Shown here: in pieces, positions 30,032-54,643 of the stretch
How positions within the stretch are numbered: the stretch's first letter is position 1
How the letters are laid out: the number at the start of each line of letters is the position of its first letter
Assembly: GCA_029959195.1 (NCBI GenBank)
Contig: CP114123.1
Span: 1,736,001 to 1,800,000 of the forward strand
Reading direction: 5' to 3'
Source of the DNA: Dictyophora rubrovolvata
Taxonomy: Eukaryota > Basidiomycota > Agaricomycetes > Phallales > Phallaceae
DNA length: 64,000 nt
Program-made: the position numbers and the translations under genes
Notes under the pieces: generated by a model
Told to the model about the DNA's origin: nothing
The model's input: the letters and a program-made list of their open reading frames with translations, nothing else
The model's database searches: none

Positions 30032-30900
30032 ATGCGGTTAGTTCCAGCCGTGAGCGAGACCACGAGTCATAGAATCACTCAGACGATGACTCAGAGTGGT
30101 TATACAACCGTTCTTGCACAAATAAGTACGTCAAACAACCCCGCCATAAGCCTCGCCACCCATATTCTTACCGCCACCGAAGATGAAGGTACGTTCTATG
30201 TCAACGCCACCCCCCATGCTGTCCTCTCATCTTTTACCAAAGACACAAATCTATTGTCAAACTCTTCGCTCCCCTCCACCTCCACCTCCACCTCGACGTC
30301 ACATGAAGGTCAAGATATGACCCACGCCTCATTCAGTCTTGCTCGAACCATCATAGCAGTGTTCGTGGCAATACGTGTGTTCCCTCTCTTTTTCTCGCTG
30401 TCTCCGTCGTTCCCTGATCTCATCACTTATGCTCAGTCATATTTTCTGCTCTGATTACTCTTCTCCTATGTCTGGGTATGCGAGGGAGAGGAAACGCCAC
30501 CGGAGAGCGTGAACTTCAACCCATGTCCGGAACGTTGGAGACGGCGAGTGCCAGAAGAAGGCAAGGAATCATACAAAACCCATTAGTAGCACCGCCACAA
30601 CCACCATATCACTATCCTCCCCCAGGTACATCAACCTCGCAGTTGACGCAAACCACCCTCAACCCCTTCTCAAACCAATTCTCAATGCCTCAACGAATTA
30701 GAGATAGACGACTGCGTTTTCCAGTGCTCACTAGTGCAATACTCCCAGAATTCGCGTTCCTATTTCATATACCCACACCGACGCCCGCTCACGTTCCCCA
30801 CCCAGCTGGCCCAGTGGCACAGCACAATACACAGCCCCCCATTGACGATTTCCCAAGTTTACCTTTCAACGACATGTCATATTTCCCTTCGCCGGTTTGA
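30032..30900 (+). CDS. STM1: Ser/Thr-rich single-pass membrane protein
   Basis: Two exons (30032-30374 and 30437-30900) separated by a 62-nt GT-AG intron give 268 residues with the frame kept. The N-terminal 110 residues are rich in Ser and Thr, with a run of alternating Ser/Thr near residue 90, suggesting an O-glycosylated exterior part. The membrane helix is ARTIIAVFVAI joined across the intron to LIFSALITLLLCLG, followed by MRGRGN and a tail with NPLVAPPQPPYHYPPP. No clear signal peptide is seen. The architecture matches the other STM genes downstream, but the tail differs. An exon upstream of 30032 cannot be excluded, because the frame stays open to 29924 without another ATG. Function unknown. 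A cell-surface sensor or adhesion role is only a guess. Confidence 0.6.
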
Positions 30901-32170
30901 GATATGGGGGGTGCCACCGATCTTTTGTGATACATATTATAATTAGATGTCATTTAGTTCGGCTGCAAGTCAGGAACGGGCCACGAACTCGGGGAGAAAC
31001 GGACCAAGAAATTCCCAAAGTTTCCTGGTTTTTCTGCATGTCGTCTTTGTTTTTAACAATTGCACTATGTGCATATACCCCGTATTTGTCTTCATCTTGC
31101 TTTCAAATATCTTGCACCAGATTTAAACCCTAATTCAAATTGCAGTGACTGCTTCATCAATTAGTTTTCAATGACTTAATAACATTACATTACGGTACTC
31201 ATCAGCATCAACAAGTCGTGTTCTTTTTTAACTGATTCAATATCACATACTTAAACCAAAGTTTCTCTGCTTAGCTTTGGCTGCGGGAAAGCGATACCAG
31301 TGTTGACGACTCTCCAGTCAGATACGGTGCGGCGCGGTCAGTTGATTTTGGGGGCACTTGGGTCATTGATAAGGCACCTGGCGGGCTTGACTATGACGAC
31401 ACTTGTATTTATTGAACTAAAGAAGAAACGCCACCTCGTATTAGCTCTTGTTTGAAATCATCGAAGGTTCTTGACTAGTGCGGTCATTGATATGGTACCT
31501 GACGGATTAATTGGCGGCCCTTGTGTTAAAAAGAAGCATCTCGTATTAATCCTTGTTAGAAGAGGTTAGAAGTCGTCGAAGCTCTTGACTACATGACTAC
31601 TTCTTGGGCTATTTTAAGCCTAGGTACGGTCTGGTTTACAATACAAACAAGCAGGAAAGGCGGATAGTCCCAGTTTTTTTTTTCACCGTCGGTGTCACCG
31701 CCCATATGTGTAATTCAGGATTGTCAGATAAAAATTAAATGGACACGTATATCCTACTGCGAACCGCTCTTCCCCTTTTGTCCGGACCCGAGTCGGATTC
31801 GATCACATAAATCATTCATATGGTCTGAGGATCTGAAAATGGCGAAAAGTTGAGAGTAGGAAGGTCGGGGCAAAGACGCAGCAAGATGTATGTAGTACGT
31901 GGAGAAAAATGTGATCGCAATGAAGCAGTGCTGTCCCACATCTCACCTCTGGGTAAGCGATCAAAAGCGCCCAAACTACGCTCTGAAGAACCTAGCCTTG
32001 CTTGTACCGAAGTCCGAAACGGATCTCAGATCTCATTGGCGGATATAAACGTTGACAGCCCGGGGTGGCGACATAAATACCCAACCCAATTTTACCTTAA
32101 AAGTCTTCAGAGCTTCAGCCCAGCTTCGATATTAGTCCCTATAGTCTTTCATCGACCGTTTCGAAACTGA
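30901..32170. repeat. Spacer with an imperfect ~115-bp direct repeat
   Basis: The segments at about 31362-31475 and 31482-31595 are imperfect direct repeats. Both begin GTCATTGATA, continue with a GGCACCTG/GGTACCTG block, have CTCGTATTA in the middle, and end near CTCTTGACTA or TTCTTGACTA. No gene is recognised. Part of the spacer (from about 31980) is repeated before STM2' near 38600. Confidence 0.5.
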
Positions 32171-33430
32171 ATGGCCCCATCCTTCCTTCGTAAAAATCCT
32201 ACGATGTCCTCTACGGCTAAACTCATCGACATCGGTACGTGATGTCAGGCCAAAGAAATCTCGAGGATTGATCCATCACAGAAGGAATAAACTCAAGTCC
32301 AGTCACCCTGCATGACCGCCACAGGGTCGAAAATCTCTCTTACACCTCCGAGGCACCGGCATTTAACATCACAGCCTCCTCGCATCCTGTCAATACCAAT
32401 GCAAGTACCCTTGCTCGTTATTCCTCGATTCCCCTTCTTCGATGGGATGCTCACCATGTTGACTGCTAGACGACTTCGACTTCAAACGGCGCGGTGTTTA
32501 CATGCGATGGTGTATGCATCACCATCACCATCGCTCTGGCCCTAGGTAAGAGCCTCAATAATTAAGCAAGATAGTTTCTCTTCGACCAGTGTTTTAAATC
32601 GTGTATCTAATAGTAATATTCTGTACATCCACCGGCCTTTTTCTCATTCTAGGCTTTAAATGCAAGAGAAATTTGAATAGATGGGTTCGGGACAATAGTC
32701 AGCAACGCACCAATTCCCCAGTGACAGCAACTGCAGCAATAAATCTCCACCCCAGAAGGTACATTTCCTTCTTCTCAATCTCCTCTTCTAAAATTGTTCT
32801 AGACCGCGACCATTGGCGGACACATCGACATCTGATGGACTGCCGCCTGCTCCTCCTTATCCCGGAAACTTTACCCTTCCACCATACTCTAACACTGCTA
32901 TCCAAGACGTTGCTGCTAACAACATCGGTCCCGGTGCCAATTCTCAAACAGACGATCAAGTATCCAGTACGCCACCAGTATATACCACCTCAGCAACATC
33001 ATTAAATTCAACCAGCTTTACTGGAGAATTACCCGTCCCTCCTACGCCTTTGATTTCAACTGTTCCACTCCCTCCTGTTGGAACCGAGAGCACTATCAAC
33101 GATGTTATTCATCCTGGTTTTATTCTCCAACACGATCCAAATGATGCCAGATCCAGGATAGATGGACAGTTAACACGAGCGGTCTGTTCGAACCATTCCA
33201 ACGACGGAATTCGGTTCGGGACCGAAGGCAACCCAAATAATTTTAATTTTAATTTTAATCTGGAATCAGTTCAGCCGACGGGAAGCCTGGGACTGATATT
33301 CAAATTGCCACTCACCTCATGTGACGTACACACGGACTTCGGTAATTCAAATCACGGCCTCGAAGACAATTCGTCAGCTTCCCTTATGGAAGGCGGTCCT
33401 TCCCCACGTCAATCTACATCAGGGATTTAG
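32171..33430 (+). pseudogene. STM2: family member with an in-frame stop in exon 2
   Basis: Four exons (32171-32234, 32282-32545, 32614-32758, 32803-33430) fit the STM gene model with consistent phases and 1,101 nt in total. Exon 2 encodes a Ser/Thr-rich exterior, then VFTCDGVC before the helix. Exon 3 gives VIFCTSTGLFLILGFKC and KRNLNRWVRDN. Exon 4 is a Pro-rich tail with APPYPGNFTLPPYSN, GELPVPPTPLISTVPLPPV and PTGSLGLIFKLP, and is longer than in STM3. A TAG at 32467-32469 lies in frame between the exterior part and the CDGVC motif. Splicing it out through nearby GT/AG pairs does not restore the frame. The rest is unusually well preserved, so the gene died recently or the stop is a variant. 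Confidence 0.65.
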
Positions 33431-34666
33431 TAAAATCCACTAAAGTTCGTTTTAGGTTTAGACATGTCGTCAAATACATGGGAAGTTCTGGCTATTTTCC
33501 CCCCTTCAATTGTTTCCCGCATATCTCTGTTTGGGTCATTTTTTGGTTTTTGTAAAAACATTAATTACCTATATTTCCGATGCACGCTAACATGTATGTA
33601 AAAAAACTGGCAACTTTGTTTGTAAAACTTTGGATTCACAGATGGAATGGTCATTGCATTTTGCAGGGAGTAGATCGTTACACCAATGCAAAAGAGGTGA
33701 CGTGATGCAGATTTGGGGTATACTAGTTGCCACTGTCAGGTTAAAAACATTGCGCCGGTCAAATATTGCTCCGGCCATTATCTGAATCATATTTAGTCGA
33801 AATGAAATGACGGATTTCGAGATCCATTTCTCGGTGCATGATCAAGAGCTCGCTTTGGTTTCCGCCAGCGTTATCGCTGATTTCCGAAGGTAGAATTCCT
33901 GGGCGTTAAATTGGTCTTGAACGTTAAATGGTCTTGAACTTTTAACGATGTGAAGAGGGGGTGTTCAAAAGGGCCAGCGCCCAATAGATCAACAATAGAT
34001 CCTTCTTTTGAGGGAAAACAAACGACGTTCCTTCTAAGCTTCCACCGCTCGCTTTTTGAGCTCAGTTTGCCGGTCTCGCCGCCTATATGCTCGCAGGTAA
34101 TATGATCGTCCTCGCTTATCGCTTTTGCAACTTCCTTATCTGCCTCTCCATGCTCGTCTGTCCCCATCTCCCGGTAAGGCATTATATGTGTAAGTGTTTT
34201 GACGTTTGGATTTCCATAGCTATATCCAGTACTAAGATCATTCTTACCAGCCCAGCCTCATGTCCCGTATGTTCCCGAGAGTAATATCGTCGATCTTTCT
34301 CTGCCATTCCAAAACAGTTCAAATGATATCCGGATTCAGAACACGAGTTGACGAACAACCAGTGTTTTCGGATCCGAACCGAACCCAATCACCACATTCA
34401 GAATTTCGGAGCGAGGCTTCTATATGCGCCCAGCCTGAGGTCTGCCGCAGAAGCGCGCACGGGCGCGCACTTTCAAAATCAAATTTGCCATCACTGCAAT
34501 CACTCTCAACTCCAATCACATACACACATGAAAAAAAATGATATTTTAAAAGTTGACCTCTGAAATCGATAAAAACTCATAATATATCAGTCTAAATTCT
34601 TCAAGCTTCAAACTTCATTAGATCTCCCGCCTGTCCTCCCACCAGGAATAATTACCCTAACAGAAC
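33431..34666 (+). pseudogene. Spacer containing a relic of STM4
   Basis: Most of this is without a recognisable gene. At about 34270-34400 the sequence matches exon 4 of STM4 near 42320-42430: both encode a segment like the FSDPN motif preceded by VDEQP. Block 1 therefore once had an STM4 gene between STM2 and STM3, as block 2 still does. Confidence 0.55.
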
Positions 34667-35762
34667 ATGTCACCCGTCTCTCTTGTCAACAACAACAACA
34701 GACATATAATATCCCCTATATCTGTCGACGGCGGTAAGTGATGTCATGCCATCAGGGAGGCACTAAAGCTGATCTGCTGGCAGGGATATCCAATTCGTCG
34801 TACGTTCATACAAGTACAATGGCTTTTCATGGCCTTTATATTGACAGTATTCCTCTCACCTCGGGACCTGTTTCCAGTATTACAGCTCCCGCCGCCCCGA
34901 CTTTGGTCAATGTCAGTGCAAGTCGGCCTACTCACTCTTCTTTTTCTTCTTCCACTACAATCCTTGCTCACCCTGTCACTTATCAGACGACGTTGGGTCT
35001 AAGTGGCCCGGTTCTGACACGCAATGATGTATGCGTAAGCGGGACCGTTATTGCGGCACTAGGTGAGAACCTTATGATTGATGAATATCTCCATATCGAC
35101 TCACATTACTCAAACTCACTTGCAAAACAGCGATATGCATTGTCCTTTTACTTTCTTCAGGCTTAGCATGCAGAAGAATCCGGGTCAGGTGGATTAGAAA
35201 CTACAGTCAGCGACGAATCAATTCCTCCACGGTGGCGACGGCAATGAGTTTCAATCACAGAAGGTTGCTTTCAGTCTTTTCAATCAAAACATGTCTTGTC
35301 CTGAGTTTTCCTAGATTACAAATGTCAATTTCTAGTGAGCTCCCATTTGCTCCTTACCCCGGAAACACCCTTCCATCATCCTCCAACGATGACGATGATA
35401 CTCAAGACGTTCCGGTCAACAACGCAGTGACTCCCGAAGATCAGATATCCAATGCGACCTTCACGAACACTAGCTTTGATGCAGCACAGACCTCAGTAAC
35501 GTCTTTAAGTTCAATCAACGTAGGTGAACTTTCGATGCCTCCAACCCCTTTTATTCCAACTATTCCACTTCCCTCTGTCGACACCCACGGTTATCTTCTC
35601 CACTCCAACTCAAGTTCTTCCAATCATGAAAATGATACCAGCATACAATCCTGTTCTACACCGGTTGGCGAAACACAAAGCAGTGAGAGCGAGGACTATA
35701 ATTCGAATTCAAATCCGGAACCGATTGGAAGCTTGGGGTTGATATTGGGAATAGCGCGGTAG
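34667..35762 (+). CDS. STM3: intact single-pass membrane protein, four exons
   Basis: Exons 34667-34733, 34784-35062, 35131-35263 and 35315-35762 total 927 nt and encode 308 residues without a break. The start MSPVSLVNNNNRH is the only ATG before the conserved first intron (GTAAGTGATGTCA). Exon 2 is exactly 279 nt, as in STM3' and STM5. It encodes a Ser/Thr-rich exterior and NDVC just before the helix. In this copy the first cysteine of the usual C-x3-C is replaced (RNDVC). The helix VSGTVIAALAICIVLLLSSG is split by intron 2. A basic stretch ACRRIRVRWIRNY follows, then a tail with YPGNTLPSSSNDDDD, ELSMPPTPFIPTIPLPSVD and EPIGSLGLILGIAR at the end. Topology (N-out) is inferred from the positive juxtamembrane residues. 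Function unknown. Confidence 0.7.
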
Positions 35763-37620
35763 GAGCACCGCTGGCATCAAGATTAGAAATGAAAACAAAA
35801 CGAGGTCATATGAGAATTGCGAATTTGGGATAAAACAAAATTTAGAATTATGGAACCTGACAAAAAAAACCATCGGAATGAAATCGCAGCGCATACAGGC
35901 ACAGAAAACCTGAGTCTTTCAAAGCTTCGTGATGTAGCTGATATATATATACATGACCAAGTTAGCAGCTAAATAAAAGGGAACAAATATTTAAATCAAT
36001 ACCCACGCAAACATCGAATCTGTAACCAATGAGAAGGCACGTGACTGAGGTAACCAGGATCGCGCAGCAGTAGGGGGTAGAAGGGTTTGTTCCGCTATCG
36101 TTTGATGCATCTTGGGGATGAAGTAGCGGATCTATCCGTTGGAAATATGATGTGTTCGAGCTAGCCTTGAGAAAGAGGTGGGCTTTAAAAGCGCCACTGA
36201 GACGAACCAATTAATCGTTAATCAGGACCAGGAGTCGACAAGAAACGGGTGTTTAGCAGCGGATGACATTGAATATACATAGGATAACGTTTCACTAACA
36301 ACAAGGACGGATGCGAACCTGAGCTGCCGAAAATGGTTATAGCTCTGAATTTGTTGGAATTAGCTCCTTGACTAGCTTGACGCCATAGGTCTGAGTACAA
36401 GTGTTGTATGAGTCGAGCGGACGAGTCCAAGACGAGTCACGACGGTTGAGAGGAGGTTCTACTAACACGGCACCACAGAGGTCCACTGTTGCACATCTAC
36501 AGTGAACCGAGATCACCGTGACCGCCGTCGTTGTCACTCTGCACTCAGTGCTCACTTCCTTGACACCTTATTGTCCGTCTAAGGCTAGTTGACTTGTGAT
36601 GCTCCATCTATTTTTGATAAAAAAAGCGTCTCTATAAGACGCAAACCAATCATTCACTTTTACTTCCACACACACCCATCTGGCATCATCGTCGACTGAT
36701 AGTCTAACTCAGGTTCCCAGATCGCTCTCACCGCCTCCAGCACAAACGTCTAAGTCTAGGGACGACTTGACTCAACACCTCCAAGTTTGCCATTTGCGAA
36801 CGTCGTGCGACGAGGTAATCTCAAGGTGCCTTCATGCGGCGACTGCAGAGCGCGACTTGATCTAATGTAAGGCGTCGGTGCTGGTTTTGCATTAGGGATG
36901 GATTGCATCGGTTGTGCATCGTCCGAGGAGATTTGGGAAGAGCCTGCTAGTCTTGCGTGGGATACTCTGGATCTAAAGGAACACGGTCAAGCATTGCTGC
37001 TACAGTGAGTAGTAGTTTGCGTCGTCTTGCCTACTTTCTGATGTTAAAGAAGGGTCCCCCTCTGGTGAGAGATCCCATAACTCCAACACGAGACTCATCA
37101 GTCTATGTGATGACTTTACACCAACCTGATATTCCCGCCGTCAAATTTTGAACTCCTCGAGTGCGTTCTAGAGCAGTTTTAGTACCGCTGTATATCTTTT
37201 TCTAAGGAAATGTGAATGCATTAGTTCCAAATTAGCAACGTTGGGCTTCATTCCTGACTGGTCGATTTAGGACTCATACCAAGCACCAGTAAATCCTCTT
37301 CTGTGATCTTTAATTTATATATATCAAGGCGGAACGGGAAAATGGGAGCATTGAGATTTTAAACCCATACGTTGGACATATTGACGAGGTAAACTCTCAC
37401 CGGAAATCAATGTCGCCCTCGCCTGATGAGTATTTGTCCTTATGTTCACCCCAGTCAGGCATACCAATTACCGTCAATGAACACGGGGGATCATACTAAC
37501 AGCTTCCGGAGTCGCATTCGAAAGAAAAGTGTCTGTGAAAATACACGTCATCCATAATGCAGTGAGTTCTTCCCTCGTAAATTAAACCAGCCACAAACCA
37601 AACTTCAGGAACAACGTAAA
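35763..37620. other. Spacer block S1, repeated twice more
   Basis: No gene is recognised. Long parts recur at 44534-46500 (S2) and 50870-52900 (S3), for example the stretch with TTAATCAGGACC at 36216, TTAATCAGGACT at 45026 and TTAATCGGGACC at 51172. The minus strand near 36850-36960 contains a degraded copy of the presequence-like fragment seen at 51717-51965. The repetition marks the boundaries of the tandem duplications. Confidence 0.55.
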
Positions 37621-37639
37621 TTTTGTCATAGGGTTTTTA

Positions 37640-38160
37640 GCACCGTCAGTCGTCCCAGCCTTCTTTTCATTTTCACTTTGTGAGATTATTTGCTGATGTA
37701 ATTACTCTTCTTTTATGTCTGGGCATGCGAGGGGGGGGGAAACGCCACTGGGGAGCGCGAACTTCAACCCATGACCGGAACCGAAGAGACAGCGACTCCG
37801 AGTACCAGAAGAAGGCAAGGAATCCTTTAGTAGCACCACCACCGTCATCACGCTATCCTCCCCGACCTTCACTCCCGAATCCATCAATATCGCGGTCGGC
37901 AGACCACCCTCAACTTCAAATTAACACCCAGCCGCACTGAGCGTAGACCAATTTTCAATACTTCAAAGAATTAGAGATAGATGACCGCGTCTTCCAGTGT
38001 TCACTAGTCATTACTCCCCGAATTCATATTTCTACTTTACACACACTCCATCTCTCGTCCCCCGCCCAGCTGACCGCAGTGGCACAGCCCAATACACAGC
38101 CCCCAGCGACGATCCTCCAAATTTTCAAAGACATGATATTCCATCACCGGTTTGATTTAT
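37640..38160 (+). pseudogene. STM1' relic (second-exon remnant of STM1)
   Basis: The stretch matches exon 2 of STM1 (30440-30900). It keeps the helix end VITLLLCLGMRG, a GAR.. juxtamembrane region, and the NPLVAPP segment, but the frame is lost after the first third by small insertions and deletions. No counterpart of exon 1 is found upstream. It marks the start of block 2. Confidence 0.65.
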
Positions 38161-38732
38161 GGGAGCACCACCGATCTTTTGGGATATCATTAGTAATTAA
38201 ATGCCATTTAGTTTGACTGCAAGCTAGATTCGAGCCACGAACTCGACGACAAACGAACTAAGAAGTTTCCAAGTTTTCAAATGAATTTTCCTGGCTTTTC
38301 TGCATGACATCCTAACGCGAGTACTTGGGCTATTTTGGGCTTGGGCACAATGTCCAAATGAAAGAAGTTCGGATATATCAGGTTTTTCCACAGTCGGCGC
38401 CACCGCCCGTATTCACATCACATACATAACTCAATCGTGCGCGTGAGGTTCTGCGTGGGCGGCGAGAATCAACGGCGAGAATCAAGCGTGAGAGTAAGAA
38501 ACTCACAGTACCACAACAAAGCCACAGCAAGATAGTCAGGCCTCAGGTCCCAGGGGGCAGATTCAAACAGATCCAAATCTTGATTCATCGGCGGCCGGCG
38601 ACGCGTGATAGTATGATATGTAACAGCCGTTTTAAATACTGTTAAATACCCAACATGTCAATTTTACTCCTCAAAAGTCTTCAGAGCTTCAGCGCAGCTT
38701 CGATATTAGCCCTCTAGTCTTTCATCGACCTT

Positions 38733-39919
38733 TTGGCACCATCCTTCCTTCGTAAAAATCCTCCGACGTCCTCTACGGCTAAACTCATCGACATCGGTAC
38801 GTGATGTCAGGCTAAAGAAATCCTGAGGATTGATCCATCGTAGAAGAAATGAACTCAAGCCCAGTCACCCTGCATGACCGCCACAGGGTCAAAAATCTTT
38901 CTTACACCTCTGAGGCACCGGCATTTAACATCACAGCCTCCTCGCACCCTATCAATACCAATGCAAGTACCCTTGCTCGTTATTCCTCAATTCCCCCCCT
39001 CGATGGGATGCTCACTATGTTTGCTAGGTGACTTCGACCTCAAATGGCGTGCCGTTTACATGTGATGGTGTATGCATCAGCATCACCATTGTCTTGGCCC
39101 TAGGTAAGAGCCTCAATAATTAAGTCAAATCGCTTTTCTTGACCAGTGTTTTCAAACCGTGCGTCTAATAGTAATATTCTGTACATCCATTGGCCTTTTT
39201 CTAGGCTTTGGATGCAAGAGAAACATGAATAGATGGATTTGGAACAATAATCGGCGACGCACCAGTTCCCCAGTTATAGCAACCGCAGCAGTAAATCTCG
39301 TCCCCAGAAGGTACATTTCCTTCTTCTCAATTTCTTCTTCTAAAATTGTTCCAGACCACGACCAGACATATTGACAATTGATGGACTCGGACTACCGCCG
39401 GTTCCTCCTTATTCCGGAAGTACCCTTCCACCATACTCTAGTACTGCTATTCAAGATGTTCCTGTCAGCAACATCAGTCCCGGTGCCAATTCTCCAACAG
39501 ACGATCAAGTATCCAATACATCACTAGCATATACAAGCTTTGCAGCACACACCTCATCTTTAAATTCAACCAACTTTACCGGAGAATTACCCGTCCCTCC
39601 TACGCCTTTGATTTCGACTGTTCCACTCCCTCCTGTGGAGAGCACCATCAACGATGTTGTCCATCCTGGTTTTATTTTCCAACACAATTCAAATGACAGA
39701 TCCGGAATAGGTGGACAACTAACACGGACGGTCCGTGATGAAGGGATTCAATTCGGGACCGAAAGCAATTCGAATGAGGGTTCTTGTTCTAATCTTAAGC
39801 CGACGGGTACCCTGGGACTGATATTCAAATTGCCACTCACCTCATGTGACGTACGTGCGGACTTTGGCAATTCAAATCACGGCCTCGAAGACGATTTCCC
39901 TTGTGGAAGGCGATCCTAG
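38733..39919 (+). pseudogene. STM2': damaged second copy of STM2
   Basis: It aligns with STM2 along its whole length at an offset near 6,560 bp. Exon-equivalents are 38733-38796, 38844-39103, 39172-39310 and 39355-39919, and the splice sites are kept. The start codon is TTG where STM2 has ATG, and no other ATG stands in exon 1. Exon 2 is 4 nt shorter than in STM2, which shifts the frame before the CDGVC-coding part. Exons 3 and 4 still read well: helix VIFCTSIGLFLGFGC, KRNMNRWIWNNN, then GELPVPPTPLISTVPLPPVE and PTGTLGLIFKLP. Probably no longer makes the full protein. Confidence 0.7.
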
Positions 39920-41444: not shown

Positions 41445-42600
41445 ATGGCACCAATGTCTATTATCAGCTTCAGGCTTATGTCCATATCCAGCGACATTGG
41501 TAAATGATATCATGTGGGGAGGCATTTAAGCTGATTCATTCCAGGAAATCCCAACTCGTCCTCCACCCAAACAAGCCTACCGACTCTTCTCGGCCTCCAT
41601 ATTGTTAACAATCCCTCTTGCATCTTGGAACCTCCTAGTGCTTCCAGCATCACCGCCTCCGCCACTCAAAACCCTGTGAGTGTCAATGTAGGTATCGTTG
41701 CTCAATTCATCAGATGTCACTTCAACGGATGCTCACCATGTTAATCTACCAGGCGCTGTTCGTATGCAACGATGTGTGCATCGGTGTCACAGTTGTCTCC
41801 GCACTAGGTAAGAGCCTGACGGTTAATCAATATATATATCTCTCTCGACCAATATTTTCAAATATTTTACCTAACAGTGATATTCAGCATATCTATTGGC
41901 TTTTTTCTTTTCCTAGGCTGTGGATGCAAGAGAAATATGAACAGATGGGTTTGGAGCAACAATCAGCGACGAACCGATTCTCCAGTGGCCGTAGCCGCAG
42001 CAATAAGTCTTAATCTGAGAAGGTACTTTTACTCTGCGCATATTCTCAGTCTCACCCCTTAAGCCGTCCCCAGATCACGAACAGAACCCTCAACGTCTAT
42101 TGAGCCCCCACCCCTTCCTCCTTATCCCGGAAACGATCTTCCAGCATACCCTGACCACAGCGTCCAGAGTGTTTCTATCAACAACATAAGTTCCGGCCGC
42201 AGCCTCGCGACACACATTTCGGCAAGATACTCAGACTCAGCTGATACCAGTGAACTGATCGTCCCTCCTATACCTTCCATCCCAACTATTTCACTCCCTC
42301 CTGTTGACAACGGGAGTAATATGGACAATATCGTCCATCTTTCTCTGCCGCTCCAAAACAGTTCAGATGACACCAGAATTCAAGTTGTTGACGAACAGCC
42401 AATGTTTTCGGACCCGAACGGAGCCCGGGCCCAACTTGCATTCAGACTTGTTTTTCCAATTCAAGAAACAGGGAACAACTTGAGCGAGGGTCCAATTTCA
42501 ATTTCAGTTTGAATTTGGAAGCAGCTCAAAACCAATTGGAAGCCTGGCATCGGTATTTGGAAATGCCGCTAGACCGCCGCCTTTAAATATTAAATTCCCA
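41445..42600 (+). pseudogene. STM4: damaged family member
   Basis: Exon 1 (41445-41499) reads MAPMSIISFRLMSISSDI and ends at the conserved first intron, GTAAATGATATCA. Exon 2 starts at 41546 in frame with a Ser/Thr-rich exterior, but a frame change occurs before VCNDVCIGVTVVSAL, the expected C-x3-C and start of the helix. Exon 3 is clean: VIFSISIGFFLFLGCGCK and RNMNRWVWSNNQRR, with two cysteines at the membrane edge. The tail keeps PPYPGNDLPAYPD and IVPPIPSIPTISLPPVD but loses the frame near its end, where GSL remains in another frame. A short GT-AG pair around 41676-41713 (38 nt) does not restore the frame. Confidence 0.6.
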
Positions 42601-43481: not shown

Positions 43482-44533
43482 ATGTCCCCTAGATCTGTCG
43501 ACGGCGGTAAGTGATATCACGTCAGGGAGGCATTAAAGCTGATATATTGGCAGGGATATCCAATTCAGGGTATGTTCAGACAAGTACAACGGCTTTTCGC
43601 AACCTTTATATTGACAGTATTCCTCTCACCTCGGGATCTGCTTCTAGTATTACAGCTCCTGCCACCCCGACTTTGGTCAATGTCAATGCAAGTCGCATTA
43701 CTCACACTTCTTCTTCCTCTCTGATCCCAATCCTTACTCACCCTGTCATTTATCAGACGACGGTGGGTACAAGCGGTCCGGTTCCGACATGCGATGGTGT
43801 ATGCGTAGGTGGGATCGTTATTGCTACACTAGGTGAGAACCTTGTGGTGGATGAATATCTCTCTATCGACCAGCATTTCTCAAATTCACTTACGAAACAG
43901 CGATATACATCGGCCTTTTACTTTCCTTAGGCCTAACACGCGGCAGAATAATCCCGAGAAGATGGACGAGGAAATACACTCAGCGACGAACCAATTCCTC
44001 AACGGTGGTGACGGCAATGAATCTCAATCACAGAAGGTTACTTTCAGTCTTTTCAACTCAAAACATTCCTCGTCCTGAGTTTTTCCAGATCACAAACGTC
44101 AGTTTATAGTGAGCCGGGCCCACTTTCTCCTTACCCCGAAGACACCCGTCCACTGCCATTCTCCAACGATGATGATGATACTCGATATGTTCTTGCCAAC
44201 AACACGACTCCCGACGATCAGACGTCATTAAATGCGACACTCACAAACTCCAGCTTCGACTCAGCACCTACATCGGTGACGTCTTTTAATTTAAACAACA
44301 CTGATGAACTTTCTATGCCTCCTGCTCCTGTTATTCCAACCATTCCACTCCCTCCTGTCGACACCCACGGTTATCTTCTCTCGTATAACCCAATTTCGCC
44401 CAATCACGAAAACGATAGCAGCATACAGTCATGTTCTGCACTGGTTGGCGAAACACAAAGCAGTGAGAGCGGAGGCTATAATTCGAATTCGAATTTGGAA
44501 CCGATTGGAAGCTTGGGGTTGATATTGGAATAA
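43482..44533 (+). CDS. STM3': paralogue of STM3 with shifted start
   Basis: Exons 43482-43506, 43554-43832 (279 nt), 43901-44036 and 44089-44533 total 885 nt and encode 294 residues without a break. The codon aligned with the STM3 start is ATA, so I chose the next in-frame ATG, 10-12 codons later (MSPRSVDG). The protein has a Ser/Thr-rich exterior, CDGVC, the helix VGGIVIATLAIYIGLLLSLGL split by intron 2, a basic stretch RRWTRKYTQRR, and the tail YPEDTRPLPFSNDDDD, ELSMPPAPVIPTIPLPPVD and LEPIGSLGLILE at the C-terminus. It is the block-2 counterpart of STM3 at an offset near 8,780 bp. Confidence 0.65.
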
Positions 44534-46540: not shown

Positions 46541-46711
46541 ATGGGACTACCTCCATGTCCGTTCTGCAAGTCGAACAGCAATACCGATGCGTTAGGGTTC
46601 GCTAAAGATACCATTTCATCGGTCAAGTTTTGTGGATGCTCAGATATGGTCCAAACTTGTGGCTTCCTTAGCCAAGGTCTCTTGTTTCGTTGGAGTGGAG
46701 GTCGTTTCTGA
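46541..46711 (+). CDS. Small cysteine-containing ORF (56 aa), hypothetical
   Basis: The frame reads MGLPPCPFCKSNSNTD at the start and later FCGCSDMVQTCGFLSQGLLF. It has a C-P-x-C pair and a C-G-C motif. Its counterpart at 52925-53122 keeps the frame although the two differ by indels of 3 and 24 nt, which favours coding. The 3' end may be spliced onward, and nothing downstream could be fixed. No known family is recognised. Confidence 0.35.
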   Translation: MGLPPCPFCKSNSNTDALGFAKDTISSVKFCGCSDMVQTCGFLSQGLLFRWSGGRF

Positions 46712-48250
46712 TCTTTTACTACATAACCTCTCTTCCTCGCCGCCCACTCCGCGCCTTGTGCCCTTTTTCACGTGATTATATATATTTTTCATTTCATTCG
46801 TTCTCAGCTGCTCTTCTTCATTATATCTGCGGTTCGGTTTTGGTTATGGTTTTGTTTGAGTTGACTCGGCCATCCTCGACGTTTTCGCACCTACACTCGG
46901 TTGTTTTCTTTTGCGTACCTTGGTTTAAGGGTCGTGTACCAGCGTGCTACTGATAAATGGTTATTTTTACAGGACATTTGACACTGACGCTGTACCTGTG
47001 CGTGAGAAGGTACTACGTATCTATATATCAGGACTTGGTGAGTCGACGTTAACTGATTGTGTTCTTGACGCGAATTGATTTAATAAACTACCTTCTACAG
47101 AGGTTGGAATGGGTATCTAATCCGACATGAGGGGGGGAACCACATCATTCGAATATTAATCCCAGGCTTCCAATTGCTTCAGGATTAAAATCCGAATTAT
47201 AATCCCTGCTCGGATTATCATTGCTCACTGGTTGGTGGACTGGAAAGTGGGAATGTATGCTATCATCGTTAGGATGATTCTCCGAATCAAAGCCGGAGCT
47301 TCGTTGGGAAAGATGATCGTTGCTGTTGAGAGGAGGAAGTGGGATAGTTGGAATCGAAAGTGTAGGAGGTACGGAAAATTCATTGTCGTTGGTTGTGTTC
47401 AGAGATGTTACCGAGTTTGTGTGTGGCGCGATGCTGAACTCTGCGGGTGTTGTACTGGATAATTCAGCGTCTGTTTGGGAATCGGCATTGGTATCCGTGT
47501 TGTTAACAGGAGTATCATCGTTAGAGTATGGTGGAAGATGGTTTCCAGGGTAAAGAGGAAGAGGTGGAAGTTCAATGGACGTTAACGTTTGTGATCTAGG
47601 TACGACTTCAGAATATGGAATTTCAGGCCGAGAAGCAAGTAATACCGTCTGGGATTAAGCTGTGTTGGTGTGGTTACCACTGAAGGATTGGTTCGTTGTT
47701 GACGACCGTATTTTCTAATCCATCTAGACACGTTTCTTCTACAGCTCGAGCCCAGGCAAAAGAAAAAGCCGAAGGAAAAGCAGGATATCACTCGTTAAAC
47801 GAACGTCAATCAATTAACGTTGCACTGGAATGGAAGAAAAAATGCTCATCGGTGCTCTCACCTATTGCAGAAACAACAGCTACGCTGACGCATACATTGT
47901 TGCATGCGAGCAGGGTGCCGTTTGTACTGGAGGTCCTTTGATAGTTGACTTGGTAAGAGATCGTTTGGGAACTTAAAGCACAGTCATGAGGAAGGAGGAT
48001 TGGGTTGGCATGGGATAGGTTAGTAGCGGTAGCGCTAGGAAACCATGTCAGGGTGGCGGTGTATGAGGGATTTCCAACGCTAATGTTGAGGCCCTGAAGG
48101 GTCATTGCACTTTTTCGAGTACATTCCGGGTTCGGTTGTTCTATATCGGCTTCAACCTTAGTGTTTCCCTGGCTTAACATCACGTACCGATGTAGCTGGA
48201 TATAGAGGACCCAAGGGTACAGTCTCTTGTATGATCTTGTGGAACCGGTG
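46690..48250. repeat. Near-identical repeat unit (partner 53100-54640)
   Basis: The two stretches, about 1.55 kb each and in the same orientation, differ at few positions, while sequence on both sides (46541-46690 against 52925-53098, and 48260-48370 against 54650-54760) is clearly more diverged. The unit covers the STM5/STM5' gene and about 450 bp beyond its stop. Either a recent duplication or gene conversion explains this. Confidence 0.75.
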
Positions 48251-48254
48251 ACAT
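47145..48254 (-). CDS. STM5: intact single-pass membrane protein, four exons
   Basis: On the minus strand, exons 48254-48188, 48140-47862 (279 nt), 47790-47646 and 47595-47145 total 942 nt and encode 313 residues. The start MSPVPQDHTRD resembles STM3. The exterior domain has a GNPSYTATLTWF segment and several N-x-S/T sites, then ACNNVC before the helix VSVAVVSAIVISCFSFGFFF, split by intron 2. Cys-containing SSCRRN and a basic stretch SRWIRKYGRQ follow, then the tail YPGNHLPPYSND, FSVPPTLSIPTIPLPPL and NPEAIGSLGLIFE at the end. All introns are GT-AG and about 48-67 nt. It points opposite to STM1-STM4. Function unknown. Confidence 0.7.
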
Positions 48255-48399
48255 TTCAATGTAGTTGTTTTTATTTGTGAGAAGAGGCTAAGCTTAAGTG
48301 TCCGGGTGAGAGTCTTGAGTGTTAACTCTTAAAGAACTGAGAACACAGATGTACATTATGGCTTTTATAACCGTCATATGTTATGCAGAATCATGCTTA

Positions 48400-48610
48400 G
48401 ATGTCATCGCTTTTCACATTTTAAAACCCCGGAATTTATCGCTGCGACTTCTCATATCTTTTAAACTCCATAATGCTGAAAAATCAGACTCCTACCCAAT
48501 CACCTTTCATATTCTTTAAACTCCGGAACTTTATTGTTGCGAAAAAATCAGACTCCTACCCAATCGTTTTTCACATTCTTTAAACTCCGAATCCTTGAGC
48601 GTCGACCTGC
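48400..48610. repeat. Short tandem repeat, ~65-75 bp units
   Basis: Units containing TCAGACTCCTACCCAATC and TTCTTTAAACTCCG repeat two to three times upstream of the STM5 start. The region is absent upstream of STM5'. It could affect the STM5 promoter, which is inference. Confidence 0.6.
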
Positions 48611-48749
48611 CAGTATTTTGACTCATTTGAAATCGTTCTAATTTCACCTTTGGCACGTGTACGGTATCGGAGCACTAAAGAGAAGCTTAGAGAAACTCAG
48701 CTGTCAAATACAAAAATTTCAAACGTGCCACCTTTGGTTTGAAAGATTA

Positions 48750-49020
48750 CCTTGCTTTTTGCCCTGACGCTTCTTGATCATCCGATAAGCATGGAAAACA
48801 CCAACACTAGTACCGTAGCGTGTGTACAAGCTATTGGCACGATTGGCCAAGACAAGATCTTCTTCCAATTCGGAACAGCCCGGGGTATCGATAGCTACAT
48901 ATTGTGGAAAAAAACAGGGATCCCAGATCTCTCACAACTGCTGTCACGCAATCCGTCCTTAACGCAAAACCAGTACCAACGCTTCCGACATTGGCAGATG
49001 TACGTGCTGGAGTAAACCAG
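48750..49020 (+). other. Exon-like fragment shared with three spacer copies
   Basis: One frame here reads TQSVLNAKPVPTLPTLADV, matching TQSTVNAKPAPTLSTFAD on the minus strand of 51717-51965 and similar fragments at 45590-45765 and 36850-36960. This copy is in the opposite orientation. The parent protein is not recognised. Confidence 0.4.
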
Positions 49021-49302
49021 CGTTTACCCTCAAGTGTTGCTTAATAGCTATGGGGGTAAAGTGGTATTCGGGATCAATGTTCCTTTTAAAAATCACTCCG
49101 TATTCCCCTTCTCTTGCATGTAAACTGGACCAGCATAGGTCTTACAACGGCTTATCCGCGTCATGTATTGTGACAACTGCGAAGAGTCTTAATACACATA
49201 GATTACAACAAACATCGGATCCAATAAATTCATATCTATAATGAAACCGATCAGAAAAAAGTGTAGATGTAAGATCAATTCTAAATCAGCATACCCAATT
49301 CC

Positions 49303-50226
49303 TCAGAACATTGATTCATCCGTTCCCTCTTTTCTCATCGAATATTTGTCCGTTGAGTGGTTTAAATGACTCGACCGGACTATCTCGCTCAGGTAGCGGC
49401 TACGGGCGTAGGAAGCGCAGAGCTGGGCGGAACAGGCAACCGCGCCACGATACGATAAAGATACAGGTATAAATTCTTGTTGTACGGTCGGTACAGACGG
49501 ACCACGTCCCGCCCTTTCGAATTTCTCATCCTCAAGTTCATACGCAGGTCTATAACGACGTGAATTCGAAGACGAAGCGATATCGGCGTTAGCATCGGTA
49601 TCTGTGTCTTGTTTTTCGATGAAGAGAGCGGGATTTGGAAACGGGTTGTATGTCGATCCTAAAGACGTGTATCTGCCGCGAGAAAGAGCAATCGTTAGTA
49701 CACTTGATAGTTTATCTGCATGGATCAATTGAGCACACACCCGATGTCAGAGATTGCAATACGCTACATCTAATGTCCGCAAAAAGCTCCAAACATCCGA
49801 ATACGACCAATCCAATATGGGGTGAACGCGCATGAAGTGAGGCCAATCGGGATCAGGCGGGTTAAAGGTAGACAATCTTCCTATATATAATAGTCGTTCA
49901 GACGGATCCACCGACCTGAATACGCCATACTCATCTGCCTCCATGAGGAGTTGTTCTTTTGTATTCCGATTAATATAGCTTCGGCGCTGGGGAAAGCATC
50001 CTTGTACGTCCGAAGCGCATCTCTCATGCCAGATTCACCGCATTGATGAAATAAAGAGAGATTGTACGCCTTTTCCAAATCTGAAAGGAATAAGTCCTTG
50101 GAATTTGGAGAAGATGGGAATATGTAGAGCGGTATAGTGAGAACAGTATAAGAAGGGTATGTTGCACCTATTTCTTTGTCTGAACCGTTGGTCGTTGTTA
50201 AGCAATGGGGATGCGCTGCATGCAAG
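49303..50226 (-). pseudogene. FAD1: FAD1 pseudogene, 5'-truncated
   Basis: The stretch aligns with the FAD synthetase gene at 57534-58753 from TYPSYTV through [19 protein letters not shown] and [16 protein letters not shown] to the C-terminal region. The first exons, with the PP-loop motif, are missing: homology stops at about 50226, where STM2-tail-like sequence begins. The substrate motif RRTDPHGG of the other copy is destroyed (an extra base, and the splice donor that follows is altered). It lies between STM5 and spacer S3. It cannot encode a working enzyme. Confidence 0.85.
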
Positions 50227-50345
50227 GGAAATTGCGACTCACCTCATGTGACGTACATGCGAACTACGGCAGTTTCACTTTCAATCCTTCAGCTCCCTTG
50301 TGGAAGGCGGCCCCATCGGACATCAATCTACACTAAGGATTTAGC
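50227..50345 (+). pseudogene. Relic of an STM2-type tail
   Basis: The stretch matches the end of exon 4 of STM2 and STM2', including CTCACCTCATGTGACGTAC, which encodes the LTSCDV segment. Nothing upstream of it survives, since FAD1 pseudogene sequence begins immediately to the left. Confidence 0.65.
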
Positions 50346-52900
50346 AAAAAGTCGAAAAAAAATCCAACATTTGTGAGAAGTTCTGTCCATAGGAGCTTTT
50401 ATTCCTTGGTTCTCGTATATCTCTATTTGGATCATTTTTCGTTCTTGTAAAAACAGGATTACCTCGCTAACATGTAACAAACTGGCAGCTCTGTTTCCTA
50501 AAACCTTGTATTCGCAAATGAAACGGTCATCGCATTGTGTAGAATCCAAAGAGTTAGCGCCCATTTTCATGACTGCACCGGCGCCCAATAGGTCCAGCGA
50601 AAAAACTACTCGATGGAACACGACGTATTGTTGAGCCATGATCCTGATCTCAATTCAACAAAGCACGCATGTGCATCAGCTGATACATGAATGATAGATT
50701 CACTTTTCTTTCCAATCCCATTTCAAAAATGTGCATTTGAATCTCACTGCCGCAATTCACATGTCTGGTGACATTTTAAATGGCCAATATAAAGCACAGG
50801 CTTTTTTTGAAACTAGCTTCGTGATGTAACTAATATATACCATATTAGCAAAATATCAGCGAAATGAAAGTGATCAAATATTTATTCCTATACCCACACA
50901 AACGATGATCGAATCTGTATCACCCAATAATTGGAATAAGAGGGTGAAAGAAAGACCGTGACAGGTAATCGGGGTCGTGCAGCAATGGGCGGTGGGGGGG
51001 TTTGTTCTGCTATGCATTTTATTGACAAAGAGAAGTCCTAGTTTGATGCGTTTTGGGGAGGAAGCAGCGGATCTGTCCGTTGGAGATATGATATGTTCTC
51101 GAGTCAGCCTTAACAAAGGAGTGGGCTTCAAACACGCTTTTAGGGATATTACATGGTAAATCAATTAATCATTAATCGGGACCAGAAGTCGACGAAAACG
51201 GTGTGTTTAACGGATGACATTGAACGTAGGATACCGTTCCACTAACATCGCAAATTTGTCAATAACAGATCATAACTGCGAATTTGTGGAATTAGCTCCT
51301 TGAATAGCTTGACGCTTTGGTTCCATTGGGCTGAGGTGTTGTGTGAGTCGAGCGGACGAGTCACGACGGTTGAGAGGAAAGGTTCCACCAGCATGGCACC
51401 ACAGAGGTCCACTGTTGCACATTCTACAGTGAAGCCGAGATCACCGTGACCGCCGTCGTTGTCACTCACTTCCTTGACACCTCACCATTGTACCGTCTTG
51501 TACCGCCCGTCTACGAGTTGACCTGTACGTTGTGATACTCCTTCCATCTGTTGCTTTTTGATAAAAAAGCGCCTTTATAAGGCACGTTTCTTGTCTAACT
51601 AATCTTTACTTCCGCGCATGTCACCTCTACTCCCTGAAATGATTAATGACGAATGATAGTACCTCAGGCCTCAGTTCCCAGGTCACTCTCACTGCCTTCA
51701 GCACAAACGACTGAGTCTAGCGTACGATTTGACTCAAGCACTTCAAAGTTAAACGTTCACCGTCTGCGAGCGTCGTGTTAAAAGGTAACACAGTTCGCAA
51801 GGTACCTTCGATGTTCATGTAATCTGCGAATGTCGAAAGCGTTGGCGCTGGTTTTGCGTTAACGGTGGATTGCGTGGCACTGGTTGTGTATTGTTTGAGG
51901 AAATTTGGGACGAGCCTGTGAGCGAGGGTTGGTCTTGCGCGTAATGCTCTGGATCTTAAAAACATGGTCAAGCGATTAGAGGAATGTGCGTCGTCTTAAC
52001 TACTTTCTAATTAATAAAGTTAAAGGAAGGCCCCCTCTTATGAGAGATTCCTTAACTCTAGCACGGGACTTGTCACTCTATGTAATAAGTTTACACCAAC
52101 CCGATAATCCCGCCGTCAATTTTTATGGGCTCCTTGAGTGCGTTCTGAGCCGGTGCACGAAGAATCCCATGGCGCTCCCATGGTACGCAACCGCTGTACT
52201 TTATTTTTCTAAGAGAATGCAAATTCATTAATTCCAAATTAGACAAGTAATGCTAGGCTTTATTCCTGACGGGTCGATCTAGGACTTGTTTCAAGCTCAG
52301 TAAATCCCCTCCTGTGAGGGATTTTCTTTGGTTTATACAGATAACCAAGCGGCCGGGAAACGAGAGCATTGGCAGTCTCCAGAGCAAAGAATCTGAACCC
52401 ATACATAGGACATTATTGACGAGGTAAACTCTTGCCGGAAATTAATGACGTCCTCACAATGATGAGCGTTTGTCCTTATGTTCAGCTCGGTCAGGCATAC
52501 CAATTCCCTGAAACAATGCAAGCAAGCCGTCAATAGAATGCGAGGAATTTTAACAGCAGCTTCCGGAATCACATTCGAGAGAGAAAAGAGTCTTCGCAAA
52601 ACTTTATGTCCTTCATGGCGCAGTGAGTTCCCTTTTGTTTTTCTTTGCGTAGGTTGAGACGAATCACAAACCAGAATTCGGAAACAACGTAAATTTCGTC
52701 ATAGATTTTTCCCCATCAGTCGTCCCACCCCTTTTCTCATTTCCACCCTGCGAAACTATCAAAAAATCTTTTCACACCTGTAGGAAGTTCAAGACGCTGT
52801 AAGCCGATACATTCAGTTTCCGACAACAAATCCTCGTGCACACGGTATTGTCCTGTCTTTACAATGATCGATCTCAGAAATCAAAGTCCAACAATTAGTT
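50346..52900. other. Spacer block S3
   Basis: No complete gene is seen. The first part resembles the region after STM2/STM2', and the rest is homologous to S1 and S2. The minus strand at 51717-51965 holds the best copy of the presequence-like fragment: MFLRSRALRARPTLAHRL and then a short QYTTSATQ segment, rich in Arg and free of acidic residues. This is typical of a mitochondrial targeting peptide, followed by a possible splice donor after NIEG. The downstream exons were not found. Confidence 0.45.
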
Positions 52901-52924
52901 TATGGAGGACCGTCGCACCTGGGA

Positions 52925-53122
52925 ATGGGACTACCCCGATGTCCGCTCTGCGAGGAGTCAAATAGCAATACTGATGTGTTGGGGTTCGCTGAAGATATCG
53001 TTGGTACACGATTTACATCTGTCGTTGCATCAGCCGAGTTTTATGAAGGCTCAAATATGGTCCAAGCTTGTGGCTCCCTTAGCCAAGGTCTCTTGTTTCA
53101 TTGGAATGGAGGTCGTTTGTAA
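52925..53122 (+). CDS. Small cysteine-containing ORF (65 aa), hypothetical
   Basis: Counterpart of the ORF at 46541-46711. It reads MGLPRCPLCEESNSNTDVLG and ends with VQACGSLSQGLLFHWNGGRL. The C-P-x-C pair is kept, while the later C-G-C of the other copy is absent. Conserved frame despite indels supports coding. Product unknown. Confidence 0.35.
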   Translation: MGLPRCPLCEESNSNTDVLGFAEDIVGTRFTSVVASAEFYEGSNMVQACGSLSQGLLFHWNGGRL

Positions 53123-53555
53123 TCTTTTACTGCATAACCTCTCTTCCTCGCCGCCCACTCCGCGCCTTGTGCCCTTTTTCACGTGATTATATATATTTTT
53201 CATTTCATTCGTTCTCAGCTGCTCTTCTTCATTATATCTGCGGTTCGGTTTTGGTTATGGTTTTGTTTGAGTTGACTCGGCCATCCTCGACGTTTTCGCA
53301 CCTACACTCGGTTGTTTTCTTTTGCGTACCTTGGTTTAGGGGTCGTGTACCAGCGTGCTACTGATAAATGGTTATTTTTACAGGACATTTGACACTGACG
53401 CTGTACCTGTGCGTGAGAAGGTACTACGTATCTATATATCAGGACTTGGTGAGTCGACGTTAACTGATTGTGTTCTCGACGCGAATTGATTTAATAAACT
53501 ACCTTCTACAGAGGTTGGAATGAGTATACTAATCCGACATGAGGGGGAGACCACA

Positions 53556-54643
53556 TCATTCGAATATTAATCCCAAGCTTCCAATTGCTTCAGGATTAAA
53601 ATCCCTGCTCGGATTATCGTTGCTCACTGGTTGGTTGACCGGAAAGTGGGAATGTATGCTATCATCGTTAGGATGATTCTCCGAATCAAAGCCGGAGCTT
53701 CGTTGGGAAAGATGATCGTTGCTGTTGAGAGGAGGAAGTGGGATAGTTGGAATCGAAAGTGTAGGAGGTACGGAAAATTCATTGTCGTTGGTTGTGTTCA
53801 GAGATGTTACCGAGTTTGTGTGTGGCGCGATGCTGAACTCTGTGGGTGTTGTTCTGGATAATTCAGCGTCTGTTTGGGAATCGGCATTGGTATCCGTGTT
53901 GTGAACATCGTTAGAGTATGGTGGAAGATGGTTTCCAGGGCAAGGTAGAAGAGGTGGAAGTTCAATGGACGTTAACGTTTGCGATCTAGGTACGACTTCA
54001 GAATATGGAATTTCAGGCCGAGAAGCAAGTAATACCTTCTGGGATTAAGCTGTGTTGGTGTGGTTACCACTGAAGGATTGGTTCGTTGTTGACGACCGTA
54101 TTTTCTAATCCATCTAGACACGTTTCTTCTACAGCTCGAGCCCAGGCAAAAGAAAAAGCCGAAGGAAAAGCAGGATATCACTCGTTAAACGAACGTCAAT
54201 CAATTAACGTTGCACTGGAATGGAAGAAAAATGCTCATCGGTGCTCTCACCTATTGCAGAAACAATAGCTACGCTGACGCATACATTGTTGCATGCGAGC
54301 AGGGTGCCGTTTGTACTGGAGGTCCTTTGATAGTTGACTTGGTAAGAGATCGTTTGGGAACTTAAAGGACAGTCATGAGGAAGGAGGATTGGGTTGACGT
54401 GGGATAGGTTAGTAGCGGTAGCGCTAGGAAACCATGTCAGGGTGGCGGTGTATGAGGGATTTCCAACGCTAATGTTGAGGCCCTGAAGGGTCATTGCACT
54501 TTTTCGAGTACATTCCGGGTTCGGTTGTTCTATATCGGCTTCAACCTTAGTGTTTCCCTGGCTTAACATCACGTACCGATGTAGCTGGATATAGAGGACC
54601 CAAGGGTACAGTCTCTTGTATGATCTTGTGGAACCGGCGACAT
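53556..54643 (-). CDS. STM5': near-identical copy of STM5
   Basis: Exons 54643-54577, 54529-54251 (279 nt), 54180-54036 and 53985-53556 total 921 nt and encode 306 residues. The protein differs from STM5 by a few substitutions and by in-frame losses in the tail (around 53905 and 53600). All splice sites, ACNNVC, the split helix and the C-terminal GSLGLIFE are kept. Small differences are in multiples of three within exons, which is the pattern expected if the protein is under selection. Function unknown. Confidence 0.7.

What the first reader, a model, noticed from the sequence alone, without database searches (positions are those of the whole stretch)
30032..54643. Tandemly expanded family of single-pass membrane proteins (STM) with a common gene plan
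Seen: at least nine copies or remnants. In the full-length copies other than STM1 exon 2 is exactly 279 nt (STM3, STM3', STM5, STM5'), intron 1 begins GTAAGTGAT or GTACGTGAT, and intron 2 falls inside the helix. Proteins share a Ser/Thr-rich exterior, usually C-x-x-V-C at the membrane edge, a basic stretch, PPTPxIPTIPLPPV and a terminal GSLGLI motif. Inference: a lineage-specific surface receptor, adhesin or self-recognition family under birth-and-death evolution. I recognise no described family with this motif set.
Basis: partly seen in the sequence, partly recalled or inferred. Interest (0 to 1): 0.85.

Follow-up and report, generated by a model that had tools for sequence, protein, structure and literature searches.

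The report
Orphan single-pass membrane protein gene cluster
A fungal genome stretch holds a tandemly duplicated family of unfamiliar single-pass membrane proteins whose best-conserved parts are short proline-rich motifs on the inside of the cell, which hints at a protein-trafficking adaptor rather than a variable surface receptor, though no function has been tested.

Summary
I count eleven copies or remnants of one gene family at 30032-54643, in three tandem segments. Exon 2 is exactly 279 nt in the four named copies, and an intron splits the membrane helix. Coding-sequence indels mostly keep the frame (7/7, 2/2, 10/12 in three pairs); spacer indels do not (12/68, 14/62). Intact and full-length by canonical signals: STM1, STM3, STM5, STM5'. 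STM3' lost its usual ATG, STM4 its C-terminus, and STM2' is probably dead. STM1 is a distant member.

No model has a hydrophobic N-terminus, so these would be N-out proteins without signal peptide. Positive selection outside was not detected. The strongest constraint is cytoplasmic: a YPGN-LPPY (L/PPxY) block, a PPTPxIPTIPLPP block and the C-terminus. Best, unproven reading: a membrane adaptor for a Nedd4/Rsp5-type ligase, working like Commissureless or Rcr1; membership tests in both fail. STM5 and STM5' are about 98% identical over 1.6 kb between much older flanks: gene conversion or recent replacement. No relative was found, but no fungal genome collection was searchable.

The parts
30032..30900 (+). 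STM1, 268 aa, exons 30032-30374 and 30437-30900 (62-nt GT-AG intron in the TM helix); distant member
   Evidence: Open spliced frame; hhalign to the family over the TM only, probability 64%, E 6.5e-5, with the intron at the same aligned residue and phase as in STM5 (models)
32171..33430 (+). STM2, 338 aa; needs an extra 81-nt excision with a weak GTCAAT donor in exon 2, status uncertain
   Evidence: 78.8% DNA identity to the STM2' segment
34283..34386 (+). remnant of an STM4-like copy in the first segment
   Evidence: 80.8% identity to 42327-42426
34667..35762 (+). STM3, 308 aa, exons 34667-34733, 34784-35062 (279 nt), 35131-35263, 35315-35762
35923..37689 (.). non-coding spacer X, copy A (copies B about 44689-46362, C about 50815-52759)
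   Evidence: Three-way alignment, indels not in multiples of 3; BLASTN
37687..38306 (+). STM1' pseudogene (3' part only, frame broken)
   Evidence: 70.7% identity to 30440-31040; many indels not in multiples of 3
38733..39919 (+). STM2', probably a pseudogene (ATG to TTG, no GT at the extra-intron donor)
41445..42512 (+). STM4, 274 aa, extra 77-nt GTGAGT intron in exon 2; stops before the terminal motif, remnants of which follow in another frame
43482..44533 (+). STM3', 294 aa from an internal ATG (usual ATG is ATA); exon 2 279 nt
47145..48254 (-). STM5, 313 aa, exons 48254-48188, 48140-47862 (279 nt), 47790-47646, 47595-47145; LPLY and LPPY motifs
46681..48303 (.). homogenised tract: 94-100% identical per 100-nt block (16 blocks) to 53092-54692; adjoining blocks 84% and 69%
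   Evidence: Windowed alignment
50229..50542 (+). remnant of an STM2 copy (3' end and downstream flank)
   Evidence: 66% identity to 33302-33666, 69% to 39827-40133
53556..54643 (-). STM5', 306 aa, same plan as STM5; first PY motif lost by substitutions, LPPY kept

Best explanation
A tandemly duplicated family of N-out, C-in single-pass proteins without a cleavable signal peptide. The outside (roughly 70-110 residues, Ser/Thr-rich) is a loosely constrained stalk or bait. The working end is the cytoplasmic tail, where an L/PPxY block and a second proline-rich block recruit a WW-domain (Nedd4/Rsp5-type) ubiquitin ligase or another proline-binding partner, so that the protein steers other membrane proteins to endosomes or sets how long they stay at the surface. 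Shown by sequence: gene family, single hydrophobic helix, charge asymmetry, motif conservation, scarcity of lysine. Inferred: topology in the cell, ligase binding and the adaptor role. The copies would allow different partners or dosage, and gene conversion keeps STM5/STM5' alike.
For: Across the four old lineages (STM5, 3, 2, 4) pairwise identity is 0.62 in the PY block, 0.57 in the second proline block and 0.53 at the C-terminus, against 0.33 in the exterior. The two best 12-column blocks of the protein are these two proline blocks (0.72, 0.69). L/PPxY occurs in 5 of 7 STM2-5 models; shuffled tails give means of 0.04-0.15 per tail, and as many as seen in 0.2-6% of shuffles for those five. 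Lys:Arg is 8:54 in the four lineages against 52:69 pooled over 8 other ORFs of the window; tails hold 0-2 lysines. K+R is 0-1 in the 25 residues before the helix and 5-8 after it in 7 of 7 STM2-5 models. Parallels: Comm acts as a Nedd4 substrate adapter through PY motifs, and its own cytoplasmic lysines seem dispensable (PMC12101832, passages read). Comm and yeast Rcr1/Rcr2 are short single-pass L/PPxY proteins, Comm lacks a signal sequence, and Rcr1 binds Rsp5 (PMC5578492, passages read).
Against: STM3, STM3' and STM1 have no strict L/PPxY; STM5' has lost the first of STM5's two. Pfam finds no RCR match; Comm appears in 1 of 5 members at E 0.18, 12.5 bits against a cut-off of 27, i.e. chance level. 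The same papers give contrary facts: one of two earlier studies found Comm's lysines to be required, Rsp5 is not needed for Rcr1's effect on chitin, and the Rcr genes did not enhance midline crossing in the fly as PRRG4 did. Motif and lysine statistics come from related sequences; for STM2' the motif is within chance (0.06). Of the 8 control ORFs, 4 are retroelement or duplicated-family ORFs and three have low Lys/(Lys+Arg) too (0.23, 0.27, 0.29). Low lysine is common in Ser/Thr/Pro-rich proteins (recalled).
Confidence: 0.33

Rival explanations
1. Surface receptor, adhesin or self-recognition family whose exterior diversifies between copies and strains.
For: Exterior is Ser/Thr-rich (26-33% in STM2-5, 37% in STM1) with N-glycosylation sequons; it is less conserved than the helix, the basic stretch and the tail motifs, about like the rest of the tail; tandem copies with loss and homogenisation. 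STM3/3' exterior dN/dS is 1.02.
Against: That ratio has an interval of 0.49-2.34; the other exterior comparisons are 0.33-0.66. No structured exterior was predicted (a 92-residue piece with 4 rows, so weak). No strain data.
Confidence: 0.25
2. Cell-wall stress sensor of the Wsc/Mid2 kind: Ser/Thr-rich rod in the wall, one helix, tail that recruits a signalling partner.
For: Same overall layout (layout of Wsc/Mid2 recalled): Ser/Thr-rich exterior, one helix, basic juxtamembrane stretch, conserved tail motifs.
Against: No signal-peptide-like N-terminus (highest 19-residue hydropathy mean near the N-terminus 0.95, in STM4); no WSC or SKG6 match in Pfam; exterior short.
Confidence: 0.2
3. A decaying orphan cluster: copies spread by segmental duplication and are mostly dead or near neutral, without a shared cellular role worth naming.
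For: Of 11 copies or remnants only 4 are intact and full-length by canonical start, splice and stop signals; the window also holds retroelement pieces.
Against: dN/dS is 0.36-0.46 by region in two old pairs and 0.50-0.60 in helix plus tail of the younger pairs STM3/3' and STM2/2', with those intervals below 1; indels mostly keep the frame; motifs are retained at near-saturated synonymous divergence.
Confidence: 0.15

Closest known systems
Commissureless (Drosophila) and PRRG proteins
   Same: Short single-pass proteins, no signal sequence in Comm and two PRRGs, L/PPxY in the cytoplasmic tail, Comm a Nedd4 adapter with apparently dispensable lysines (PMC5578492, PMC12101832; passages read)
   Different: No significant sequence match; STM3, STM3' and STM1 lack the strict motif; Ser/Thr-rich exterior with a CxxVC edge; fungal
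Rcr1/Rcr2 (Saccharomyces cerevisiae)
   Same: Fungal proteins with cytoplasmic PY motifs and a Comm-like layout; Rcr1 binds Rsp5 (PMC5578492, passages read)
   Different: No Pfam RCR match in the members scanned; the second proline block and GSLGLI terminus are not known to me in Rcr (recalled)
Wsc/Mid2 cell-wall sensors (recalled)
   Same: Ser/Thr-rich exterior, one helix, cytoplasmic tail
   Different: No signal-peptide-like N-terminus, no WSC or SKG6 match

Membership tests
Commissureless (PF15957) | Match to the family profile | tested here: not met
   1 of 5 members, E 0.18, 12.5 bits against a cut-off of 27
Commissureless (PF15957) | Single helix, no signal peptide, basic residues inside | tested here: met
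   Hydropathy and charge count, 7 of 7 STM2-5 models; no trained predictor was used
Commissureless (PF15957) | Cytoplasmic L/PPxY that binds Nedd4 | tested here: inconclusive
   Motif in 5 of 7; binding not testable here
RCR family (Rcr1/Rcr2) | Match to the Pfam RCR profile | tested here: not met
   No match up to E 10 among 5 members, with HMMER's filters on; STM1 none up to E 5
RCR family (Rcr1/Rcr2) | Role in surface level of permeases or chitin deposition | not testable with these tools
   Needs mutants
Wsc/Mid2 sensors | Cleavable signal peptide | tested here: not met
   No hydrophobic N-terminal stretch in any of 8 models; the STM3/STM3' BLASTN match begins about 17 nt before the STM3 ATG, which argues against a shared upstream exon
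Wsc/Mid2 sensors | WSC or SKG6 domain | tested here: not met
Diversifying self-recognition family | Positive selection in the exterior | tested here: inconclusive
   dN/dS 0.33-1.02 in six pairs; of four intervals computed none lies wholly above 1 and two span 1; no strain data

The most novel reading that the evidence does not exclude
A new fungal family of signal-peptide-less, lysine-poor membrane adaptors that evolved independently of Comm, PRRG and Rcr to the same working plan: a free-running exterior picks the cargo, a conserved PY plus proline-block tail recruits the ligase, and tandem duplication with gene conversion tunes the cargo range.
Probability: 0.2. Interest if true: 0.7.

Novelty: new variant of a known kind. 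Interest (0 to 1): 0.42.

Why it matters
If the adaptor reading is right, a fungal lineage made its own set of ligase adaptors with duplicated, loosely constrained outsides, a simple system for asking how adaptor families acquire new cargo. If the receptor reading is right, it would be a candidate for surface recognition in mushrooms, where few such genes are known (recalled). Either way it is a compact case of a membrane-protein array with frame-keeping coding sequence, dead copies and a sharply bounded homogenised tract.

Tried and rejected
Tried without result: Pfam on exon-level and spliced proteins (nothing at its cut-off); PDB profile search (0); viral contigs with the alignment (39 pattern matches, none a relative) and bacterial/archaeal genomes with STM5 (154 pattern matches, none a relative), neither a fungal collection; Rfam at gathering thresholds (0); AlphaFold of the exon-2 exterior (pLDDT 38.7, not used further). 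Seven answered paper searches listed no paper that I recognised as describing this family; only listings were seen except for the passages of PMC5578492 and PMC12101832. 'Not in print' is not claimed.

Rejected: an extra exon-2 intron with donor GTACCC in STM2 (65 nt), because it breaks the frame there, and the 61-nt version breaks it in STM2' (my frame arithmetic). The spacer X as a hidden gene: its indels ignore the frame. Positive selection in the exterior: not shown. Membership in Comm or RCR: profile test not met.

Full report
WHAT THE WINDOW IS. The window reads as fungal nuclear DNA (short introns, 44-81 nt in the models; Ty3-type retroelement pieces), probably from a mushroom-forming basidiomycete. 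That last step is my inference: no genome is held for it and no fungal collection can be searched. Pfam places a retrotransposon gag (7491-7973), reverse transcriptase/RNase H (19436-20194), an integrase zinc-binding domain (20489-20857) and pieces of a flavin amine oxidase (62589-62948, 63090-63617) in the window.

THE ARRAY. BLASTN of the window against itself and tblastn with the models resolve eleven copies or remnants in three tandem segments. Segment A: STM1, STM2, an STM4 remnant, STM3, spacer X. Segment B: STM1' (broken), STM2', STM4, STM3', X, STM5 and a copy of a FAD1-like gene at 49.1-50.2 kb that seems to lack the 5' part. Segment C: an STM2 3' remnant, X, STM5' and the other FAD1-like copy at 57.3-58.4 kb. 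The simplest history is repeated unequal exchange of a unit STM1-STM2-STM4-STM3-X-STM5-FAD1-like with later losses (inference). The FAD1 label rests on recalled motifs; Pfam gives only PAPS_reduct below its cut-off (14.8 bits against 22.5).

CODING. Spliced models give open frames (coordinates in 48, except that STM1 ends at 30900). Indels in aligned coding sequence are multiples of three in 7/7 (STM3/3', one of them the 42 nt that my internal start for STM3' causes), 2/2 (STM5/5'), 10/12 (STM2/2', whose models were spliced so as to keep the frame) and 8/10 (old pair STM3/STM5). In the spacer they are so in 12/68 and 14/62. dN/dS (Nei-Gojobori; 95% bootstrap) for helix plus tail is 0.50 (0.32-0.72) for STM3/3', 0.60 (0.44-0.86) for STM2/2', 0.44 (0.28-0.62) for STM3/STM5 and 0.46 (0.30-0.67) for STM2/STM4; for the exterior it is 1.02 (0.49-2.34), 0.44 (0.15-1.57), 0.41 (0.22-0.81) and 0.36 (0.19-0.77). 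In the exteriors of the last two pairs 856 and 785 of 1000 bootstraps were usable because synonymous sites are near saturation. Without intervals, STM5/5' gives 0.40 overall and STM4/STM5 0.54 overall with 0.66 in the exterior. STM2 and STM2' are uncertain models, so their values may mix living and dead sequence.

STATE OF THE COPIES. Intact and full-length with canonical start, GT-AG introns and stop: STM1, STM3, STM5, STM5'. STM4 also splices canonically, with an extra 77-nt GTGAGT intron, but stops early; a KPIGSLA stretch follows in another frame. STM3' lacks the usual ATG. STM2 needs a GTCAAT donor, and STM2' lacks both ATG and a GT at that donor. The removal lengths that restore frame (81, 77 and 77 nt) start at the corresponding place in STM2, STM2' and STM4 by my reading of the sequences, which favours an ancestral intron there.

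STM1 BELONGS, DISTANTLY. The tblastn does not link STM1 to the others, but that run used a mis-set second exon, corrected. Profile alignment matches only the helix (probability 64%, E 6.5e-5), which alone could be hydrophobic resemblance. But the intron falls on residue 115 in STM1 and 116 in STM5, both in phase 1, and these residues are paired in that alignment.

TOPOLOGY. Each of the 8 models has one strong helix (STM1 has a weaker second hydrophobic stretch near residue 206). Lys+Arg number 0-1 in the 25 residues before it and 3-8 after it (8 of 8, STM1 lowest). No N-terminus is hydrophobic, and the STM3/STM3' match begins about 17 nt before the STM3 ATG, so I see no sign of a shared signal-peptide exon. 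N-out without signal peptide is therefore the likely topology, by hydropathy and charge only.

WHERE THE CONSTRAINT LIES. In the four old lineages pairwise identity is 0.39 in exon 1, 0.33 in the exterior, 0.43 in CxxVC plus helix, 0.45 in the basic stretch, 0.62 in the PY block, 0.35 in the middle tail, 0.57 in the second proline block, 0.27 after it and 0.53 at the C-terminus. The two best 12-column blocks are the PPTxxIPTIPLP block and the PxxxYPGN-xLP block (0.72, 0.69). The tyrosine of YPGN is kept in 6 of 7 models (Cys in STM5'); a strict L/PPxY is present in STM2, STM2', STM4, STM5 and STM5' and absent in STM3, STM3' and STM1. Lysine is scarce: 0-2 per protein in STM1, 3, 3', 4, 5 and 5', 5-6 in STM2/2'. 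Lys:Arg is 8:54 in the four lineages against 52:69 in eight other ORFs of the window (binomial 3e-7 against these and 4e-4 against random codons, both overstated because the sequences are related; three control ORFs are themselves at 0.23-0.29).

MECHANISM. These facts point to the tail as the working end. The closest working parallels are Commissureless and yeast Rcr1 (PMC5578492 and PMC12101832, passages read): single-pass, cytoplasmic L/PPxY, Nedd4/Rsp5 partner. Whether Comm needs its own lysines was disputed between two earlier studies; the 2025 paper treats them as dispensable. Rcr1's effect on chitin does not need Rsp5, and the Rcr genes did not enhance midline crossing in the fly as PRRG4 did. 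STM proteins may work like these; they are not shown to be members, and the profile tests fail. SH3 or other proline-binding partners are equally allowed by the second block.

GENE CONVERSION. STM5 and STM5' are 94-100% identical per 100-nt block from 46681 to 48303, whereas the neighbouring blocks fall to 84% and then 69-80% over the next kilobase (nine of the blocks beyond; the farther 45543-45642 block is again 95%) on one side and to 69% on the other. Of the aligned intron bases 167 of 167 are identical, with one 1-nt gap. The FAD1-like copies beyond are 83% identical. The segment duplication is thus older than the identity of the genes: gene conversion, or a very recent replacement of just this gene. 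Within the tract the coding sequence carries 18 substitutions and two in-frame indels; a cluster of the substitutions turns STM5's LPLY into LLPC, removing the first PY motif in STM5'.

VERDICT. Not extraordinary, since orphan single-pass families are common in mushrooms (recalled), but the signal-peptide-less plan, the tail-centred constraint and the homogenised pair make it worth a targeted test.

Noticed in passing
49108-50213 and 57335-58414: Two copies (83% identical) of a FAD1-like gene on the minus strand (label recalled); the first ends beside an STM2 remnant and marks the boundary of the tandem segments.
   Followed up: partly
35923-37689, 44689-46362, 50815-52759: Three copies of a non-coding spacer between convergent STM3 and STM5, with better-conserved sub-blocks; a piece recurs inverted at 48945-49009.
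   Followed up: partly
56366-56832: Short MITE-like element with 26-nt terminal inverted repeats, 92% complementary.
   Followed up: partly
5805-6978 and 16925-18134: Another duplicated stretch (78.9% identical) with ORFs; the one scanned (17482-18099) has no significant Pfam match.
   Followed up: no
1-25500: Dense dispersed direct and inverted repeats with gag, RT/RNase H and integrase pieces: a transposon-rich flank of the cluster.
   Followed up: no
46681-47144 and 53092-53555: About 450 nt of non-coding 3' flank of STM5/STM5' lies inside the homogenised tract; it may hold a promoter or short transcript on the plus strand.
   Followed up: no
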